This document shows, one piece after another, positions 3,642-9,084 of a stretch of 64,000 nt of DNA. Source of the stretch: Arthrobacter stackebrandtii (lineage in GTDB: Bacteria > Actinomycetota > Actinomycetes > Actinomycetales > Micrococcaceae); NCBI RefSeq assembly GCF_017876675.1, contig NZ_JAGIOI010000001.1, forward strand, positions 1,922,001-1,986,000, written 5' to 3'. Both the position numbers and the translations under genes were made by a program. The notes beneath the pieces are model-generated. The model was not told the origin of the DNA, made no database searches, and saw only the letters and a program-made list of their open reading frames with translations. Every line of letters starts with the position of its first letter. Position 1 is the first letter of the stretch.

Positions 3642-4169
3642 ATGTTTGATTACGATCCCTATTCCTTCCTGACGCCCGTGCCGGAGTTTGAGGTGCGCAG
3701 CGACTCGTTCACGGATGGGGCCACCTTCGCCCCTGCCCAGGTCCACGCGGGCGCCCACCCCGGCGGCCGGGACCTTTCACCGCAGCTGTCCTGGACAGGC
3801 TTCCCGGAAGGCACGCGCAGCTTCGCCGTCACCGTCTATGACCCCGACGCGCCCACCGCCAGCGGCTACTGGCACTGGGCCGTGGCAAACATCCCGGCTT
3901 CTGTGACGGCGCTGGCGGAGGGAGCCGGCACGCCCAGTTCGCCGCTGCTGCCGTCGGGTGCGCTGACCCTGAAGAACGACGGCGGGTTCCCCGGCTACAT
4001 GGGCTCGGCACCTCCGCTGGGCCACGGTCCGCACCGATACATGGTGGTGCATGCCGTCGACATTGAGTCGCTGGATGTCGGTGCGGACCCAACACCCGCG
4101 ACGCTGGGGTTCAACCTGCACTTTCACACCCTGGCCAGGGCGCGGATCACGGGGCCGTACGAGGTGTAG
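3642..4169 (+). CDS. YbhB/YbcL-family PEBP-like protein
   Basis: A 175-residue protein of the phosphatidylethanolamine-binding / Raf-kinase-inhibitor-like fold. The hallmark ligand-site sequences are visible: [33 protein letters not shown] and [12 protein letters not shown]. Bacterial members are cytosolic and their biochemical role is not established; some inhibit proteases or kinases in vitro. A GAGAGG ribosome binding site precedes the ATG. The gene sits 21 bp after the PfkB kinase. Confidence 0.92.
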
Positions 4170-4503
4170 CCGGGCGCCTGTACCCGGATATTTTGTGACG
4201 AAAGTTTACGCGCTGGGCACTGTCCAAACGGACATTCTTGGCGGCGGACTGGCAGCTTGGTGAACATAATTTGACGCGACCATTCAGCGGATTTTTAGAT
4301 ATTCAACGTGTAGGTACTTCGAGCAGACGCCAAATCCGTGCCGAATGGGGATCAATCCGTTGACAGATTTTCAGTATCTCGAGTCCGGGGCGGCATCTGA
4401 CCAACTCTGCATGCGAAAGATTGCGGCCAGGTTCGATGGCAGACTATGGACATTGTTTGGCCAGCCGGCCAGCATCTGGTCTTGTAGATTGAAGGGGAAT
4501 CTT
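4170..4503. other. 334-bp AT-richer intergenic region
   Basis: No convincing gene was found here. It contains a small hairpin (TGTCC/GGACA arms, 4221-4234) soon after the PEBP gene, a possible promoter (4271-4300) and then about 200 nt of apparent leader before the secreted-protein gene. The sequence is visibly poorer in G+C than the flanking kilobases, which marks the left edge of a possible acquired segment. Confidence 0.6.
4271..4300 (+). promoter_or_regulatory. Candidate promoter for the secreted-protein/ABC exporter cassette
   Basis: TTGACG (4271-4276), an 18-nt spacer and TTAGAT (4295-4300) resemble a housekeeping sigma promoter. It would give a leader of about 200 nt before the GTG at 4504. 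A second TTGACA at 4360-4365 has no acceptable -10 partner. Confidence 0.3.
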
Positions 4504-4920
4504 GTGAGAAAGTTGTTGAGTGGAATAACACTTCTGGTGACGATCTGTCTGGGCGGATTGTTTGTAACTCCGGCCGCAAACGCTGCTTCGGCGGGGTTGG
4601 CGGGAACCGTTAATTGCAATGGAAGCTGGGCGACCTATTCGACGGTGCGGAAGACGACGCAATACGGGACAAGTTTCTACCTTGCTCAGGCCGCTGGCAG
4701 TGCTGGGAACCTTGTGTACAAAGCCGACTATTCCATGAACATTGGAATGTATATTGTGGCTATCGGCGTAAACCACAACAAATATTACGCTGGAGCGGGC
4801 CGCAATTACACATTGCAAAATGCCGGCTATGTCCTTGGGACTCGATTCACCATGCAAGCTCAGATGGCTCCATCACATGGAACGTGCTCAAATACGTGGA
4901 ACGGGACGCTTAGCTACTGA
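4504..4920 (+). CDS. Secreted two-cysteine protein of unknown family
   Basis: I chose the GTG at 4504 because AAGGGGAA lies just upstream and the protein then begins with a textbook Sec signal (KLL, a hydrophobic core, cleavage after ANA near residue 27). The mature part is about 111 residues, rich in Tyr, Asn, Gly and Ser, with just two cysteines, C38 and C128, close to its two ends. That layout suggests a small disulfide-closed beta-rich secreted protein. No family was recognised. Its TGA overlaps the ATG of the following lipoprotein by 1 nt, so the two are translationally coupled, and an ABC exporter follows. A bacteriocin- or toxin-like role is inferred only from size, secretion and context. 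Codon use is less GC-rich than in the neighbours. Confidence 0.75.
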   Translation: MRKLLSGITLLVTICLGGLFVTPAANAASAGLAGTVNCNGSWATYSTVRKTTQYGTSFYLAQAAGSAGNLVYKADYSMNIGMYIVAIGVNHNKYYAGAGRNYTLQNAGYVLGTRFTMQAQMAPSHGTCSNTWNGTLSY

Positions 4921-5432
4921 TGCGGAGAAGTTCTGTAAATTTGTCACCCATGGCTGCTGCCTTGGCGTGCGCACTGCTGCTGACGTCGTGTTCGACCAAT
5001 GAACCACAAGCCTCCGCTACAGATGATGGCATCAAGTTGGTAACGTACGCCGACATGACCAAAGATTATGTGGACTCCCAGGCGGACTATCTCTTACCTG
5101 CGGCAGCAACTTATCCTGACATTTCAACGTTTAATCTATATTCCGACGGAACCTTTCAAGATGGCTTTGGCGAAGGCCGGGCCGTGTATATTTGGAATTG
5201 CGCGTGGGCGAGTGAGTATCTCAAGCAGGAGGACAAAAGTAGCGAATCTGCATTACATGCACTCGAAGTGTATGCATCCATGGAAAAAATGGACCCGTAC
5301 ATAAATGATTGGGATGATCAATCCATGAAGATTCCATTCGTAGCGATGGTTGAGAGTGCCAGGTTGGGTGATTCATCAGGTATCCAGCGGGATACAGACA
5401 TCAACTGTCCTGGTGGAGACCCTCGGAGGTGA
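4920..5432 (+). CDS. Putative lipoprotein of unknown function
   Basis: A 170-residue protein with a lipoprotein signal: basic start, hydrophobic core and lipobox LLTSC (lipidated Cys near residue 28). The mature part is acidic, with Tyr/Asp-rich stretches, and no domain was recognised. Its ATG overlaps the stop codon of the secreted two-Cys protein (TGATG), which implies a fixed stoichiometric partnership. An anchored cell-surface partner of a secreted effector often acts as immunity or capture protein; that is inference here. Base composition is also lower in G+C than the window average. The adaptor gene follows after 64 bp. Confidence 0.75.
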   Translation: MRRSSVNLSPMAAALACALLLTSCSTNEPQASATDDGIKLVTYADMTKDYVDSQADYLLPAAATYPDISTFNLYSDGTFQDGFGEGRAVYIWNCAWASEYLKQEDKSSESALHALEVYASMEKMDPYINDWDDQSMKIPFVAMVESARLGDSSGIQRDTDINCPGGDPRR

Positions 5433-5496
5433 CAAGTGCGTGCAACCGCAGCAGGTGTTTGGGCGCGTTGCCCCTTTCTAAAGGCGGAAAGTAATA

Positions 5497-6387
5497 GTGA
5501 AAATGCGTTTTTCCATCAGGTCCGGCTTCGTGCTGCTGGCGTTGTCTGTACTGTTTCCCGTGGCTGTGGCGGCCACGGTTGGCTGTTCTCCCGTACATGA
5601 TGAGGTTCAGGGAGCGCAGCTGGCTGTGACGCCGAACGCGCCTGTGACAGTGGCTGTCCAGCGCAAGGACATGGCCTCCGTTCTGGTCCTGGATGGGGCA
5701 GTCCAGTCCAGGCCTGTCTATGTCATATCCGCGCCGGCAACTGGTGCGATGGCCTTTGCCGATGACGTGGCTGTTGGCGCTTCAGTCATGAAGGGCCAAA
5801 CCGTAGGGACCGTGGACGACATCCCGGTCACTGCCGTTGAGGCGGGAGTGGTTTCCGAGTTGTTGGCGGAGCCGGGAGCGCAGGTATCTGCAAAGGTTCC
5901 CCTGCTGACGGTGAAGTACGGCGGCTTTGGGCTGCTGGCCCAAGTTCCCGTGGACAAATTGTACCGGCTGTATTCGGCACCTGTTTCGGCGCGCGCCAGC
6001 ATCCAGTATGGCCCGGCCGGGCTTGGCTGCGCTCTGACGCCTGCCGCCGCCGACCAGGTTGCCGTTCCGGATGGCGGTTCGGACGGAGGCGTGGGGCCGG
6101 AATTCCTATGCCTGCTCCCGGCTGATGCGGACGTGGTTCCGGGCCTCTTTGGTTCCGTTGGCATTGCACTGGACAAGAAGCCGGGGATCCTCACACTTCC
6201 GGCCACTGCTGTCCGGGGTAGCTCCCAAAAGGGGGTTGTCAGCAAGATTGACGGTGGGTCAACCACGCTTGTTGACGTCCAGTTGGGTATTTCCGATGGC
6301 GTGGACGTTGAGGTCACGGGCGGTCTCAAGGAAGGGGACACGGTCTCCAACCAGGCGCCAGGCTTGATAAATGATGCCGCTCATTAG
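5497..6387 (+). CDS. Periplasmic-adaptor/HlyD-like subunit of a MacB-type ABC exporter
   Basis: A 296-residue exported protein starting at GTG 5497 (AAGGCGGAAAG just upstream). It has an N-terminal membrane segment ending in a possible lipobox (VGC) and then a split lipoyl-like hairpin (AVGASVMKGQTVGTVDD, then AGVVSELLAEPGAQVSAKVP), typical of membrane-fusion adaptors that work with FtsX/MacB permeases in Gram-positive bacteria. The C-terminal part (about 220-290) resembles the membrane-proximal beta domain (LPATAV, GLKEGDTV). It overlaps the ATPase gene by 17 bp, so the two are one operon. Its role is probably to couple substrate handling outside the membrane to the ABC motor. Confidence 0.82.
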   Translation: MKMRFSIRSGFVLLALSVLFPVAVAATVGCSPVHDEVQGAQLAVTPNAPVTVAVQRKDMASVLVLDGAVQSRPVYVISAPATGAMAFADDVAVGASVMKGQTVGTVDDIPVTAVEAGVVSELLAEPGAQVSAKVPLLTVKYGGFGLLAQVPVDKLYRLYSAPVSARASIQYGPAGLGCALTPAAADQVAVPDGGSDGGVGPEFLCLLPADADVVPGLFGSVGIALDKKPGILTLPATAVRGSSQKGVVSKIDGGSTTLVDVQLGISDGVDVEVTGGLKEGDTVSNQAPGLINDAAH

Positions 6388-7078
6388 CGTCGACGGGGCT
6401 TCTTCCCATGTGATGCTGGCCTCGGGTGAGCAATTGACCATCCTTGACGGAATCGACTTTCAGGTCCGGGCGGGCCAGAAAGTCGCCATCTTAGGCCGCT
6501 CCGGCAGTGGAAAGACCACTCTCATGACGTTGCTGGGCATGATGAACAAACCCGACTCTGGGACAGTGGAAATTGCCGGACAGCAGTCAGGACAGCTCAG
6601 CGACACAGGACTTTCACGATTCCGCAGCGCCAACATTGGGTTTGTGTTTCAGAATTACTCGCTCATTCCGCACCTGGACGTGTTTCACAATGTTGAGATG
6701 CCGCTGGTGTACGCAAAAAAGTTCCATCGGCGGGAGTACAAGGCGCGTGTGCGTGCCGCACTGGATGCCGTGGGAATGATGGACAGGATCTCAGAAATGC
6801 CTGCCAAGCTCTCAGGCGGTGAACAGCAACGCGTTGCGATTGCCCGGGCCATAGTCACCGAACCAAAGGTTCTGCTGGCCGACGAACCAACCGGTGCGTT
6901 GGACACGGTGACGGCAGAAAAAATCCTGGACCTCCTGTGCACCATAGGTGGACAGGAAGACTCATGCCTGGTGGTGGTGACCCATGACCCCGAAGTGGCC
7001 CGTGACTTGGACGTCTCTTATGAACTGACACCCGGAGGCTTGCGTCCGCTGGCCGCAGCCGCGGAGGTGGCCCTTTGA
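6371..7078 (+). CDS. ABC transporter ATP-binding protein (MacB/LolD type)
   Basis: A 235-residue ATPase. Walker A is LGRSGSGKTTL, the Q-loop is in VFQNYSLIPHLDV, the signature is LSGGEQQRVAIARA, Walker B is VLLADEPTGAL and the H-loop is VVTHDPE. These are features of the mechanotransmission MacB/LolD/FtsE branch rather than of importers. Start could be ATG 6371 or 6374. It overlaps the adaptor gene upstream and by 4 nt (TTGA) the permease gene downstream, so all three subunits are translationally coupled. Confidence 0.94.
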   Translation: MMPLISVDGASSHVMLASGEQLTILDGIDFQVRAGQKVAILGRSGSGKTTLMTLLGMMNKPDSGTVEIAGQQSGQLSDTGLSRFRSANIGFVFQNYSLIPHLDVFHNVEMPLVYAKKFHRREYKARVRAALDAVGMMDRISEMPAKLSGGEQQRVAIARAIVTEPKVLLADEPTGALDTVTAEKILDLLCTIGGQEDSCLVVVTHDPEVARDLDVSYELTPGGLRPLAAAAEVAL

Positions 7079-8241
7079 TCCGTACGATTCTGCTTGACCT
7101 GCGGGCCAGCAGGCTTCGGGTCACATTGACCGCCTTGAGCATGCTGCTGGGTGTGCTGGCTGTGGTGGGGGTGGCCGTTGGTGGTGTCATTGGCAGGGAC
7201 GCCTTTGTTGGCCAGGCCGAGCAGGAGTCCGGCAGAGCGGTGACGTTTGCGCAAAACTTCCAAGTGGCTGCCAACAACGTGGACAGACTTCCTGCACTGG
7301 CTTCTGCGTTGGGGCAGCGAACCGTGAACTCAGACACGCGGACCATGGTGTCCGTGACAGGATCGACGCCTGTCACCTTAAGATCCACACCTAGTGCCTT
7401 GAACATTGCGTGGTCGTCGACAGATTCCGGGAACTTCTTCAGGCGGCCGTTGCTGGAAGGGAACAGTCTCTATTTTGGTGGCCGTCTGCCGCGTGGGATT
7501 ACCCTCAACCAGCCGGCCAGAACGCAACTGGGAATTGATGTGGGCGGGACTTTCCAGGTTTCATGCCCGGGCAGCGGAAGCCGTGCCGTCTTCACCGTTT
7601 CAGGCATTGTTGATGACGGGGCAAGTGATCCCAACGGCTATTCAGCGCTTCCCCAAATACTAGACGTCTGCCCTGCAGCCCTGGTGGGCGCCAATGCTGA
7701 AATGCGTGTGCAAAGTGCCACGTTGGCGGAGTCCGCTGCTACAGGGGTGATGGCAGACTCGCTCCACTACACGCGGTTTGCGCCCCAGGGCGACGTCCGG
7801 AGGGCAGACACTGTTGACCAGTTGGAGAAAAGCATCGGCATCCTTTCAACTGTCTTCCTTGTTGCCGGGGTGGCGCTGCTGCTGGTGTCCGGGATCGGCA
7901 TCTTGAACGTGGGGCTTGCCTCCGTGAGGGAGCGGGCCCGGGAGCTTGTGGTCCGCCGCGCCATGGGTGCATCAAAGGGCCACATCTTCATCCAGGTCAT
8001 GGGCGGTGCGGTTGTGGTGGGGCTCGGCGTGGGTGCCCTCGGCACCGTGCTGGCAGTGGCCGCCACGTATGCCCTGCCGGGGTTTTTGTCCGCAAACGCA
8101 AGCATCGTTCAGGCGCCGGATTTCCCGTGGTGGGCCTGCGCCGTCGCACTTGGTGCAGCGCTGCTGACCACCATTGCCGGCAACCTTGCCCCCGCCGTGA
8201 AGGCAACACGCCTGCCGGTCGCCTCGGCCCTTCGCGAATAA
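7075..8241 (+). CDS. ABC transporter permease (MacB/FtsX type)
   Basis: A 388-residue permease beginning at TTG 7075, preceded by GGAGG with 7 nt spacing. Topology is typical of MacB/FtsX: one N-terminal membrane helix (about 15-45), a large extracytoplasmic domain (about 46-260), then three C-terminal helices (about 263-290, 307-340 and 352-375). The conserved sequence VRERARELVVRRAMGAS sits after helix 2. It forms a tripartite unit with the adaptor and ATPase. The substrate is unknown; the secreted protein and lipoprotein encoded upstream are the obvious candidates to be exported or to be protected against. Confidence 0.92.
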   Translation: MIRTILLDLRASRLRVTLTALSMLLGVLAVVGVAVGGVIGRDAFVGQAEQESGRAVTFAQNFQVAANNVDRLPALASALGQRTVNSDTRTMVSVTGSTPVTLRSTPSALNIAWSSTDSGNFFRRPLLEGNSLYFGGRLPRGITLNQPARTQLGIDVGGTFQVSCPGSGSRAVFTVSGIVDDGASDPNGYSALPQILDVCPAALVGANAEMRVQSATLAESAATGVMADSLHYTRFAPQGDVRRADTVDQLEKSIGILSTVFLVAGVALLLVSGIGILNVGLASVRERARELVVRRAMGASKGHIFIQVMGGAVVVGLGVGALGTVLAVAATYALPGFLSANASIVQAPDFPWWACAVALGAALLTTIAGNLAPAVKATRLPVASALRE

Positions 8242-8277
8242 AGCCCACCCCGCGCGGGAAGTTGGATAGCCTTGGGT

Positions 8278-9084
8278 ATGCGTTTAATTGCCAGTGACAT
8301 TGACGGAACCATCCTGGGCCACGACGGTAAGATCAGCGACCGCACCGTGGAGGCCTTCGCCGCTGCCGCCGAGGCAGGCATTGACATTGTGTTCGTGACG
8401 GGACGCCCGCCGCGCTGGCTGGACCCCATCCGGGACCGGCTGGGCCACACCGGCACCGTCATCTGCTCCAACGGCGCCGTCAGCTACGATCTCGGCACCG
8501 AGCGGGTCACCGGCGCGCACGTCTTGGACTGGGCCACCGTGGACCGGGTCCGCACCATCGTCAGCGAACTGGCGCCGAACCCGTATTTTGCGCTGGAGTC
8601 CCTCACCGGCTTCCATGTGGAGAAGGGCTTCCACGGCACCCGCGCGGCTGCCAGCGGCGAGTTCGTCCCCGGCCCCCTCACCCCGGACATGGCCGACGGC
8701 GGGATCGTGAAGATGCTCGCCGTGCTGCACGAGGGCAGCGCCGACGACTTCCTGGACCTAGTCAGCCCCCGGCTGAGCCCGCTCCTGGCCGTCACCCACT
8801 CCGCCCCGGACCTGGCGCTGCTGGAAATGGGGCCACTGGGCGTCAACAAGGCCGTGACCCTGGCCGAGTATGCGGCCGCCCGCGGCATTGAGGCGACCGA
8901 CGTCGTGGCCTTCGGCGACATGCCCAACGACATCGAGATGCTCGGCTGGGCCGGTGCCGGCTACGCCATGGCCAGCGGGCACCCCCAGGCGATTGCGGCG
9001 GCGGCGCTGGCGGCCCCACGCTTTGAGGACGACGGCGTGGCCCGCGTCATCGAATCCCGGCTGGCTGCGCTGCGGCTGGCCTAG
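8278..9084 (+). CDS. HAD-superfamily Cof-type phosphatase
   Basis: A 268-residue haloacid-dehalogenase hydrolase of the Cof/YidA subfamily. The catalytic DxD is in motif I (ASDIDGT, residues 6-12), motif II contains VTGRPP, and motif IV is AFGDMPNDIEML. A C2-type cap fills the middle. Such enzymes dephosphorylate sugar phosphates, nucleotides or flavin precursors, with broad specificity. I chose ATG 8278 because it puts the catalytic motif at the usual distance; an in-frame TTG lies 6 nt upstream. The gene follows the exporter permease by 36 bp but is probably unrelated to it. Confidence 0.88.
   Translation: MRLIASDIDGTILGHDGKISDRTVEAFAAAAEAGIDIVFVTGRPPRWLDPIRDRLGHTGTVICSNGAVSYDLGTERVTGAHVLDWATVDRVRTIVSELAPNPYFALESLTGFHVEKGFHGTRAAASGEFVPGPLTPDMADGGIVKMLAVLHEGSADDFLDLVSPRLSPLLAVTHSAPDLALLEMGPLGVNKAVTLAEYAAARGIEATDVVAFGDMPNDIEMLGWAGAGYAMASGHPQAIAAAALAAPRFEDDGVARVIESRLAALRLA

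What the first reader, a model, noticed from the sequence alone, without database searches (positions are those of the whole stretch)
4271..8241. Secreted two-Cys protein, coupled lipoprotein and MacB-type exporter: possible undescribed antagonism/immunity cassette
Seen: five same-strand genes with TGATG, 17-bp and TTGA overlaps. They encode a secreted 111-residue mature protein with cysteines near both ends, a lipoprotein, an adaptor, an ATPase and a MacB/FtsX permease. Known: MacB-like ABC systems in Gram-positive bacteria often give immunity or exporter function beside bacteriocin genes. Inference: the secreted protein is an effector or signal and the lipoprotein plus ABC system protects or exports. 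Neither of the first two proteins matched a family that I know.
Basis: partly seen in the sequence, partly recalled or inferred. Interest (0 to 1): 0.72.

Follow-up and report, generated by a model that had tools for sequence, protein, structure and literature searches.

The report
Secreted protein with ABC immunity cassette
A recently acquired five-gene set in an actinobacterium belongs to an undescribed, widely scattered gene set that pairs a small secreted protein with a membrane-anchored partner and a pump, arranged like a bacterial weapon and its antidote, although no killing has been tested.

Summary
In detail: five tightly packed + strand genes (4504-8241) encode a secreted protein (P1), a lipoprotein (P2), an adaptor-like protein (P3), an ATPase (P4) and a MacB/FtsX permease (P5). 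They fill a ~4.07-kb low-GC islet absent from the same site in 22 of 22 other genomes of the genus. Single-sequence searches with P1 and P2 found only themselves or a near-identical copy. Profile searches revealed an unnamed P1 family (77 proteins) and an unnamed P2 family. In 21 of 21 P1-bearing genomes examined, P2 lies beside P1; in 20 of 21 the P3-P5 genes do too (Actinomycetota, Streptococcus suis, Dethiobacter; one set in a prophage). Permeases beside P2 form one clade (100/100). Eight loci keep P2-P5 without P1, scattered over the tree; two carry P1 remnants while P2-P5 remain open. That fits a lost weapon with kept immunity. P1 has its own Sec-type signal, so the ABC set more likely protects than exports. 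Best reading: a bacteriocin/immunity cassette of a new type, working like lactococcin 972 or NisI/NisFEG systems but without detectable homology to lactococcin 972. Solitary P2 relatives also exist. Killing is untested.

The parts
4504..4920 (+). P1: secreted 138-aa protein (about 111 aa mature), all-beta model; member of an unnamed family
   Evidence: no significant match in Pfam, NCBIfam, PHROGs or PADLOC for the family
4920..5432 (+). P2: 170-aa lipoprotein (lipobox cysteine C24, my reading), helical model; C94 and C163 conserved in most relatives
   Evidence: no significant Pfam or NCBIfam match
5497..6387 (+). P3: MacA/RND-type adaptor-like protein, 296 aa; several relatives appear to have a lipobox (my reading)
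   Evidence: (TIGR01730, below cut-off)
6371..7078 (+). P4: MacB/LolD-type ABC ATPase, 235 aa
7075..8241 (+). P5: MacB/FtsX-type permease, 388 aa (TTG start)
4170..8239 (.). Islet that holds the cassette, between a PEBP-family gene (ends 4169) and a HAD-family gene (from 8272); GC 57.9% against 69.7% in the flanks (family names of the flanks are my reading)

Best explanation
The islet is a small antagonism and self-immunity cassette. P1 is secreted through Sec (inferred from its signal peptide), folds as a small basic beta-sandwich (model, moderate confidence), and acts on the envelope of neighbouring Gram-positive cells (inferred). P2, tethered by its lipid anchor, binds or shields against P1 at the membrane surface (inferred). 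P3-P4-P5, a MacAB-like machine working from the outer face, uses ATP to push P1 or P1-bound material away from the membrane (inferred, by analogy with YknXYZ, NisI/NisFEG and AS-48 transporter 2). Shown: the genes, the recurring linkage, the single P2-associated permease clade, recent acquisition in this genome, and repeated absence of P1 with P2-P5 intact.
For: P2 beside P1 in 21 of 21 P1-bearing genomes examined, and P3-P5 in 20 of 21, across Actinomycetota and Bacillota with three gene arrangements. The P5 tree puts all 28 permeases of P2-bearing loci on one side of a 100/100 branch, apart from 10 relatives without P2. Eight loci have P2-P5 without P1; this label needs 5 changes on the tree, 4 of them forced by supported branches. 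In two of them P1 has lost its start codon and carries gaps that break the frame, while P2-P5 stay open: dN/dS 0.07-0.28 against the relative with intact P1 (L035), and 0.04-0.12 for P2, P4 and P5 (0.51 for P3, few changes) between the two P1-less loci. One genome (G686) carries both a full set (L082) and a P1-less set (L083). LuxR-type response regulators or a HisKA_3 kinase lie near four sets in the family that includes Bifidobacterium (L083, L088, L128, L129), and an HTH regulator lies upstream in S. suis. One set sits between endolysin and integrase genes of a prophage. P1 is basic (window mature pI 9.4; median 9.1 over the last 105 residues of 51 members). Precedents, from passages or abstracts read: Lcn972 binds lipid II and is encoded with putative ABC immunity genes (PMC4055356); [quoted passage not shown] NisI and NisFEG act together (PMC4828448); YknWXYZ protects from SDP (PMC4887032, abstract; PMC5985334).
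Against: No experiment shows killing. P1 has no detectable homology to a known bacteriocin; hhalign of mature domains against six lactococcin 972 family rows gave probability 0.1. The P1 fold search gave only generic beta-sandwich matches, none with Foldseek E at or below 0.001, and the model is only moderately confident (pLDDT 72). P2-like lipoproteins also occur alone, without P1 or P3-P5 in the 7-10 kb fetched, in 11 of the 16 P2 loci fetched in the window's family. Symbioplanes has P1 and P2 without the ABC genes within 7 kb. In L033-L035 the P3-P5 genes appear recently exchanged (dS 0.035-0.079 against about 0.5-0.6 for P2 and an upstream gene), so their conservation after P1 loss is shown over little time. 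The pneumococcal strains with immunity genes but no peptide do not appear to express them (PMC11796350), and the same paper says that the two accessory genes of lactococcin 972 loci have not been verified by experiment. P1-less sets would also fit a resistance or sensing module whose ligand comes from other cells.
Confidence: 0.57

Rival explanations
1. P1 is a secreted signal or kin-recognition ligand; P2 is its surface receptor and P3-P5 a MacB-like mechanotransmission device that passes the signal inward or clears the ligand.
For: P1-P2 linkage in 21 of 21 genomes and regulators near some sets. MacB-type transporters also serve in sensing (PMC5985334, passages). P1-less sets could be eavesdroppers.
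Against: I see no regulator gene in the window islet: among the mechanical ORFs of 4170-8271 only the five genes look real to me. An adaptor is more typical of efflux or protection systems (recalled). Repeated P1 absence with P2-P5 kept fits immunity at least as well.
Confidence: 0.2
2. P3-P5 export or release P1, as the first reader also proposed: the ABC machine extrudes P1 from the membrane or wall zone, and P2 is an accessory chaperone.
For: Co-localisation of P1 with P3-P5 in 20 of 21 genomes. MacB systems handle substrates up to 10 kDa proteins, and the review lists AS-48H with 'export?' (PMC5985334, passages).
Against: P1 has a Sec-type signal peptide (my reading). Eight P2-P5 sets are kept without P1. 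Symbioplanes has P1 and P2 without ABC genes within 7 kb.
Confidence: 0.12
3. The set is an envelope-maintenance or adhesion system: P1 is a secreted wall-binding or appendage protein and P2-P5 traffic lipoproteins or wall material, as LolCDE or FtsEX do.
For: Generic beta-sandwich model with carbohydrate-binding and appendage proteins among weak matches; the best NCBIfam match of P4 is LolD, below its cut-off.
Against: Patchy, horizontally moved distribution: absent at the site in 22 of 22 genus mates, present in a prophage, and only 3 of 390 family genomes with a strong P1. Repeated P1 absence is also unlike a housekeeping role.
Confidence: 0.11

Closest known systems
Lactococcin 972 and streptococcin loci (TIGR01653; lcn972-orf2-orf3, scbABC)
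   Same: Small secreted bacteriocin, thought to use Sec and forming a beta-sandwich, encoded with putative ABC-type immunity genes; some pneumococci lack the functional peptide but still have the immunity genes, apparently not expressed (PMC4055356 and PMC11796350, passages).
   Different: P1 is longer (about 111 mature residues against 66 in 2lgn) and shows no detectable profile homology. No P2 lipoprotein or adaptor is mentioned for those loci in the passages read. P4 is below the cut-off of the Lcn972 ABC model TIGR03608 (189.9 against 254.85 bits).
Nisin immunity NisI + NisFEG
   Same: Lipoprotein plus ABC transporter that cooperate in self-protection, with a two-component system in the cluster (PMC4828448, passages).
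   Different: NisI is mainly beta-sheet whereas P2 is modelled as helical. The producer peptide is a lantibiotic. That NisFEG has no MacA-like adaptor is recalled.
YknWXYZ of Bacillus (protection from SDP toxin)
   Same: MacA-like adaptor, separate ATPase and MacB-like permease that protect from a Sec-dependent endogenous toxin (PMC4887032 abstract; PMC5985334 passages).
   Different: The fourth component YknW is a membrane protein, not described as a lipoprotein in the text read; the toxin is a 42-residue peptide. That the transporter genes are unlinked to the toxin gene is recalled.
Enterocin AS-48 transporter 2 (AS-48EFGH)
   Same: ABC set in a bacteriocin cluster; transporter 2 gives cross-resistance to enterocins MR10A/B (PMC8306556 abstract); AS-48H is listed among MacB homologues (PMC5985334 passages).
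   Different: The review lists its function as 'export?'. AS-48 is a circular hydrophobic peptide (abstract of PMC3942455 in search listing); no P2-like lipoprotein is mentioned in the text seen.

Membership tests
Lactococcin 972 family bacteriocins | Match to TIGR01653 (curated cut-off 32.1 bits) | tested here: not met
   Window P1 is not matched even at E 10. Of 21 P1-family members, one matches at E 0.058 and the others not at E 1.
Lactococcin 972 family bacteriocins | Detectable profile homology of the mature domain | tested here: not met
   hhalign of trimmed mature alignments (51 and 6 rows), probability 0.1. Untrimmed alignments gave 60-65% but mostly over signal peptides.
Lactococcin 972 family bacteriocins | Beta-sandwich fold like 2lgn | tested here: inconclusive
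   P1 model is all-beta (pLDDT 72); 2lgn is not among the 50 rows shown of either list, and the model is only moderately confident.
Lactococcin 972 family bacteriocins | Antibacterial activity through lipid II | not testable with these tools
   Needs purified protein.
MacB family (MacAB / YknXYZ-type) ABC systems | FtsX/MacB-type permease plus MacB/LolD-type ATPase | tested here: met
   PF02687 E 1.1e-16 and PF00005 E 9.1e-36, both over the curated cut-off; LolD and MacB models head the NCBIfam list for P4, below their equivalog cut-offs.
MacB family (MacAB / YknXYZ-type) ABC systems | MacA-like adaptor in the operon | tested here: inconclusive
   P3 matches TIGR01730 at E 9.9e-9 but 34.6 bits against a cut-off of 94.9; no Pfam match at E 1e-4. 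Adaptor-like, not a full family call.
LanI/LanFEG immunity | Immunity lipoprotein and ABC genes beside a secreted antimicrobial | tested here: inconclusive
   The layout is met, but P2 matches no family and P1's activity is unknown.
LanI/LanFEG immunity | Lanthipeptide modification enzymes in the cluster | tested here: not met
   None of the five islet proteins matches such an enzyme in Pfam or NCBIfam (for P4 the best 25 NCBIfam rows are shown, all ABC ATPases). Other operons were not tested for this.

The most novel reading that the evidence does not exclude
A new class of Sec-secreted protein bacteriocin, without detectable sequence relation to lactococcin 972, with its own two-layer immunity (helical lipoprotein plus adaptor-equipped MacB machine). 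It would be shared by Actinomycetota and Bacillota and spread in part by prophages, with P1-less 'immunity-only' sets acting as inherited defences against neighbours that carry P1.
Probability: 0.48. Interest if true: 0.76.

Novelty: new variant of a known kind. Interest (0 to 1): 0.64.

Why it matters
It defines two unnamed protein families and a five-gene unit that recurs across genera and crosses phyla. If P1 kills, this is a new protein antibiotic class whose resistance genes are already present, without P1, in several bacteria including relatives of Bifidobacterium. Orphan P2-P5 sets would then mark who is protected, and the ecological prediction (P1 producers against P2-P5 carriers) can be tested directly. 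Even if P1 is a signal, the linkage makes the question 'what do adaptor-bearing MacB systems of Gram-positive bacteria act on?' directly testable, because the likely ligand is encoded next door.

Tried and rejected
Single-sequence searches with P1 and P2 found only themselves or a near-identical copy, which looked like orphan genes; the profile search overturned this. Homology to lactococcin 972 was suspected from a similar-looking stretch and one weak model match; untrimmed hhalign gave 60-65% probability, but mostly over signal peptides, and on trimmed mature domains it vanished. Rejected as membership, kept as analogy. Fold searches of P1 and P2 against the PDB gave no specific relative. 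A sequence-profile search of PDB chains with the P1 family found none at E 10. Relatives of P1 in plasmid and phage records were sought by tblastn with one family member, P0042, and not found; divergent copies may be missed. PADLOC and PHROGs have no significant model for P1. The paper searches gave no description of this family among the titles and abstract starts listed (open-licence PMC only). I first counted L075 as lacking P1, as tree still labels it; a six-frame scan found a full-length P1 frame without ATG, GTG or TTG start, and the labels were redone. P1 rows dropped before counting: weak partial hits L133/L123 (G226) and L102-L105. P2 rows dropped: 7 of the 24 hits (L021, L022, L024, L026-L028, L031), short matches in frames of other length, not fetched. 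P3 rows not followed: 5 of the 25 non-window matches (G605, G511, G670, G524, G467).
Full report
WHAT IS THERE. The five genes are present as described, on the + strand, with the overlaps named. P4 and P5 are clear MacB-family components, P3 is adaptor-like, and P1 and P2 have no significant match in Pfam or NCBIfam. The simple promoter scan found no sigma-70-type site in 4100-8400, so nothing is claimed about the promoter.

A RECENT ISLET. In 22 of 22 other genomes of the genus the flanking genes (a PfkB-type kinase, usually the PEBP-family gene, then the HAD-family and GDPD-type genes; names are my reading) lie together without room for the cassette. The PEBP gene was not found between them in 4 of the 22 (L140, L141, L145, L149), and in L157 the PEBP-HAD gap is about 770 bp. 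P1 itself was found in 1 of 23 genomes of the genus, the window's own. Against the closest relative (L137), similarity stops at about the PEBP stop codon and resumes at about 8240. The islet has 57.9% GC against 69.7% for the flanks; P1 and P2 are lowest, at 51.6% and 49.5%.

THE P1 FAMILY. Single-sequence search of 5.8 billion proteins found only P1 itself. A whole-genome search with P2 (24 of 395 family genomes at E 0.01) led to a second complete operon in another genus of the family (L035; P1 41% identical over 123 residues) and, with P3, to more distant P1s beside related ABC genes. A five-row profile then found 77 proteins, the window's own included, the weakest at E 1.5e-5; only the 7998 candidates sharing most words were scored, so this is a lower bound. 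Where a source name is shown it is 'hypothetical' or 'uncharacterized', apart from a 'Porin' label in one UniRef entry that looks spurious to me. Named sources include Trueperella, Schaalia, Boudabousia, Arcanobacterium, Bifidobacterium, Clavibacter, Symbioplanes, Streptococcus and [Ruminococcus] gnavus. The consensus of the main group runs YVSG.LNTSGSLVQYDYTRTHTFTGPISLS...MPSGYLRLGLRNMK.SGGPQFT.TLQWN..G.K.W..IL.GTRFAFQGRM.AC.WFCDN.WGG.LTY. No library searched has a significant model for it. The window protein belongs to a divergent branch with P0062 and P0068 (42-47% identity). Frequency: strong P1 in 3 of 390 genomes of the family (a fourth, G226, is weak and partial), 3 of 326 of the phylum with the window included, and 8 of 189 of the family that includes Bifidobacterium (12 with weak partial hits). 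That last family is named from a contig shared with B. polysaccharolyticum.

LINKAGE. I examined 21 distinct genomes with a strong P1: the window, L035, L036, L075, L078, L079, L082, L126-L132 and L109-L115. P2 lies beside P1 in 21 of 21 and P3-P4-P5 in 20 of 21; in L115 the P5 gene is cut by the contig end. The exception is Symbioplanes (L114), with P1 and P2 only within 7 kb on either side. L107, L108 and L116 repeat loci already counted. The other proteins have no context that I looked at. Gene order is P1-P2-P3-P4-P5 in 11 (window, L035, L075, L082, L113, L115, L126, L127, L129, L131, L132), P1-P3-P4-P5-P2 in 7 (L078, L079, L130, L109-L112), and P3-P5 divergent from P1 and P2 in 2 (L036, L128), so the linkage has survived rearrangement.

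A TRANSPORTER CLADE TIED TO P2. Of 20 fetched P3-like regions from the order (19 genomes; 20 of the 25 non-window matches), 10 have P2 (one, L074, as a fragment cut by the contig start) and 10 do not. In a P5 tree of 38 rows, the 28 permeases of P2-bearing loci lie on one side of a 100/100 branch and the 10 without P2 on the other. Three of those 10 rows are poorly filled, and L132 has a long branch. The Streptococcus suis set lies inside a 100/100 group of otherwise actinobacterial rows, which implies transfer between phyla. The profile used to pick P5 was built from operon members, but all 38 loci put in gave a P5-like row, so the split is not a product of selection by that profile.

P1 IS MISSING, P2-P5 ARE KEPT. 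Eight loci have P2-P5 but no P1 (L033, L034, L044, L081, L083, L088, L089, L090); L074 cannot be judged. On the tree this label needs 5 changes, and supported branches force at least 4; a change may be a gain or a loss. L033 and L034 belong to the same genus as L035 and show P1 remnants without the start codon and with gaps that break the frame. Their P2-P5 remain open. Against L035, dN/dS is 0.07-0.28; between L033 and L034, both without P1, it is 0.04 (P2), 0.51 (P3, few changes), 0.11 (P4) and 0.12 (P5). The P3-P5 genes of these three loci have low dS (0.035-0.079) and look recently exchanged, so this shows retention over a short time only. A six-frame scan (pieces of 20 residues or more) of ten loci that seemed to lack P1 found one overlooked P1, in L075; remnants were looked for at the DNA level only in L033 and L034. 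Against a strict unit: 11 of 16 fetched P2-family loci in the window's family are solitary lipoprotein genes without P1 or P3-P5 in the 7-10 kb fetched.

STRUCTURE. P1: all-beta, eight strands, mean pLDDT 72, pTM 0.57; weak matches to many unrelated beta-sandwiches and no Foldseek E at or below 0.001. P2: helical with two short strands, mean pLDDT 80, pTM 0.71; no match at E 0.001. P2's C94 and C163 are invariant in a 15-row family alignment but missing in the S. suis and Dethiobacter copies.

MECHANISM. Shown: the genes, the linkage, the clade, the acquisition, the absences of P1. Inferred: P1 leaves by Sec, acts on other cells, P2 binds it at the membrane surface and P3-P5 clear it. The immunity reading is preferred over export because P1 has its own signal peptide and the ABC set occurs without P1. 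It is preferred over structure or adhesion because the set is patchy and mobile, and over pure signalling because the closest documented analogues are mostly protective (PMC4055356, PMC11796350, PMC4828448 and PMC5985334, passages read; PMC4887032 and PMC8306556, abstracts read). Two cautions from those texts: the accessory genes of lactococcin 972 loci are only predicted to give immunity and transport (PMC11796350), and one MacB homologue in a bacteriocin cluster is listed as a possible exporter (AS-48H, PMC5985334). I put the immunity reading at 0.57.

NOVELTY. The architecture is that of known bacteriocin-immunity systems, but the secreted family (four libraries) and the lipoprotein family (two libraries) have no model there. 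Of the ten paper searches made, searches were aimed at novelty and listed nothing that describes this set; they cover only open-licence PMC papers. I file it as a new variant of a known kind, not as a member of the lactococcin 972 family, whose model and profile tests were not met.

Noticed in passing
L109 6932-10682; L116 9893-13682 (IMG/VR record): In Boudabousia liubingyangii the cassette sits in a prophage between holin/endolysin genes and two integrase-type serine recombinases (PHROGs): a prophage-carried antagonism cassette.
   Followed up: partly
L033, L034 and L035, P2 to P5: L035 differs from L033 and L034 with dS about 0.5-0.6 for P2 and an upstream aminopeptidase-like gene but only 0.035-0.079 for P3-P5, which suggests recent exchange of the ABC genes with a breakpoint between P2 and P3.
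   Followed up: partly
L037-L043, L045-L048: Solitary P2-family lipoproteins in the window's family, without P1 or P3-P5 in the DNA fetched: possible orphan immunity genes or a different role.
   Followed up: partly
L075 from about 3338, + strand: Full-length P1-family frame with signal-like start but no ATG, GTG or TTG start codon in frame: rare start codon, sequencing error or early decay.
   Followed up: no
L082 and L083 (same genome, G686): One genome of the Bifidobacterium family carries a full cassette and, elsewhere, a P1-less P2-P5 set beside a response regulator and a histidine kinase.
   Followed up: partly
L128 4829-5221 and 7381-7836: Two different P1-family genes in one cluster, with a LuxR-type response regulator and two more minus-strand genes between them.
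   Followed up: no
L111 5875-6852: An HTH_3 regulator, Rgg-like by my reading, lies upstream of the S. suis set on the opposite strand.
   Followed up: partly
L133 4708-5157 (G226): A weak P1-like frame (E 5e-4, 5e-6, N-terminal part only) without P2 or P3-P5 recognised nearby; not counted as P1.
   Followed up: partly
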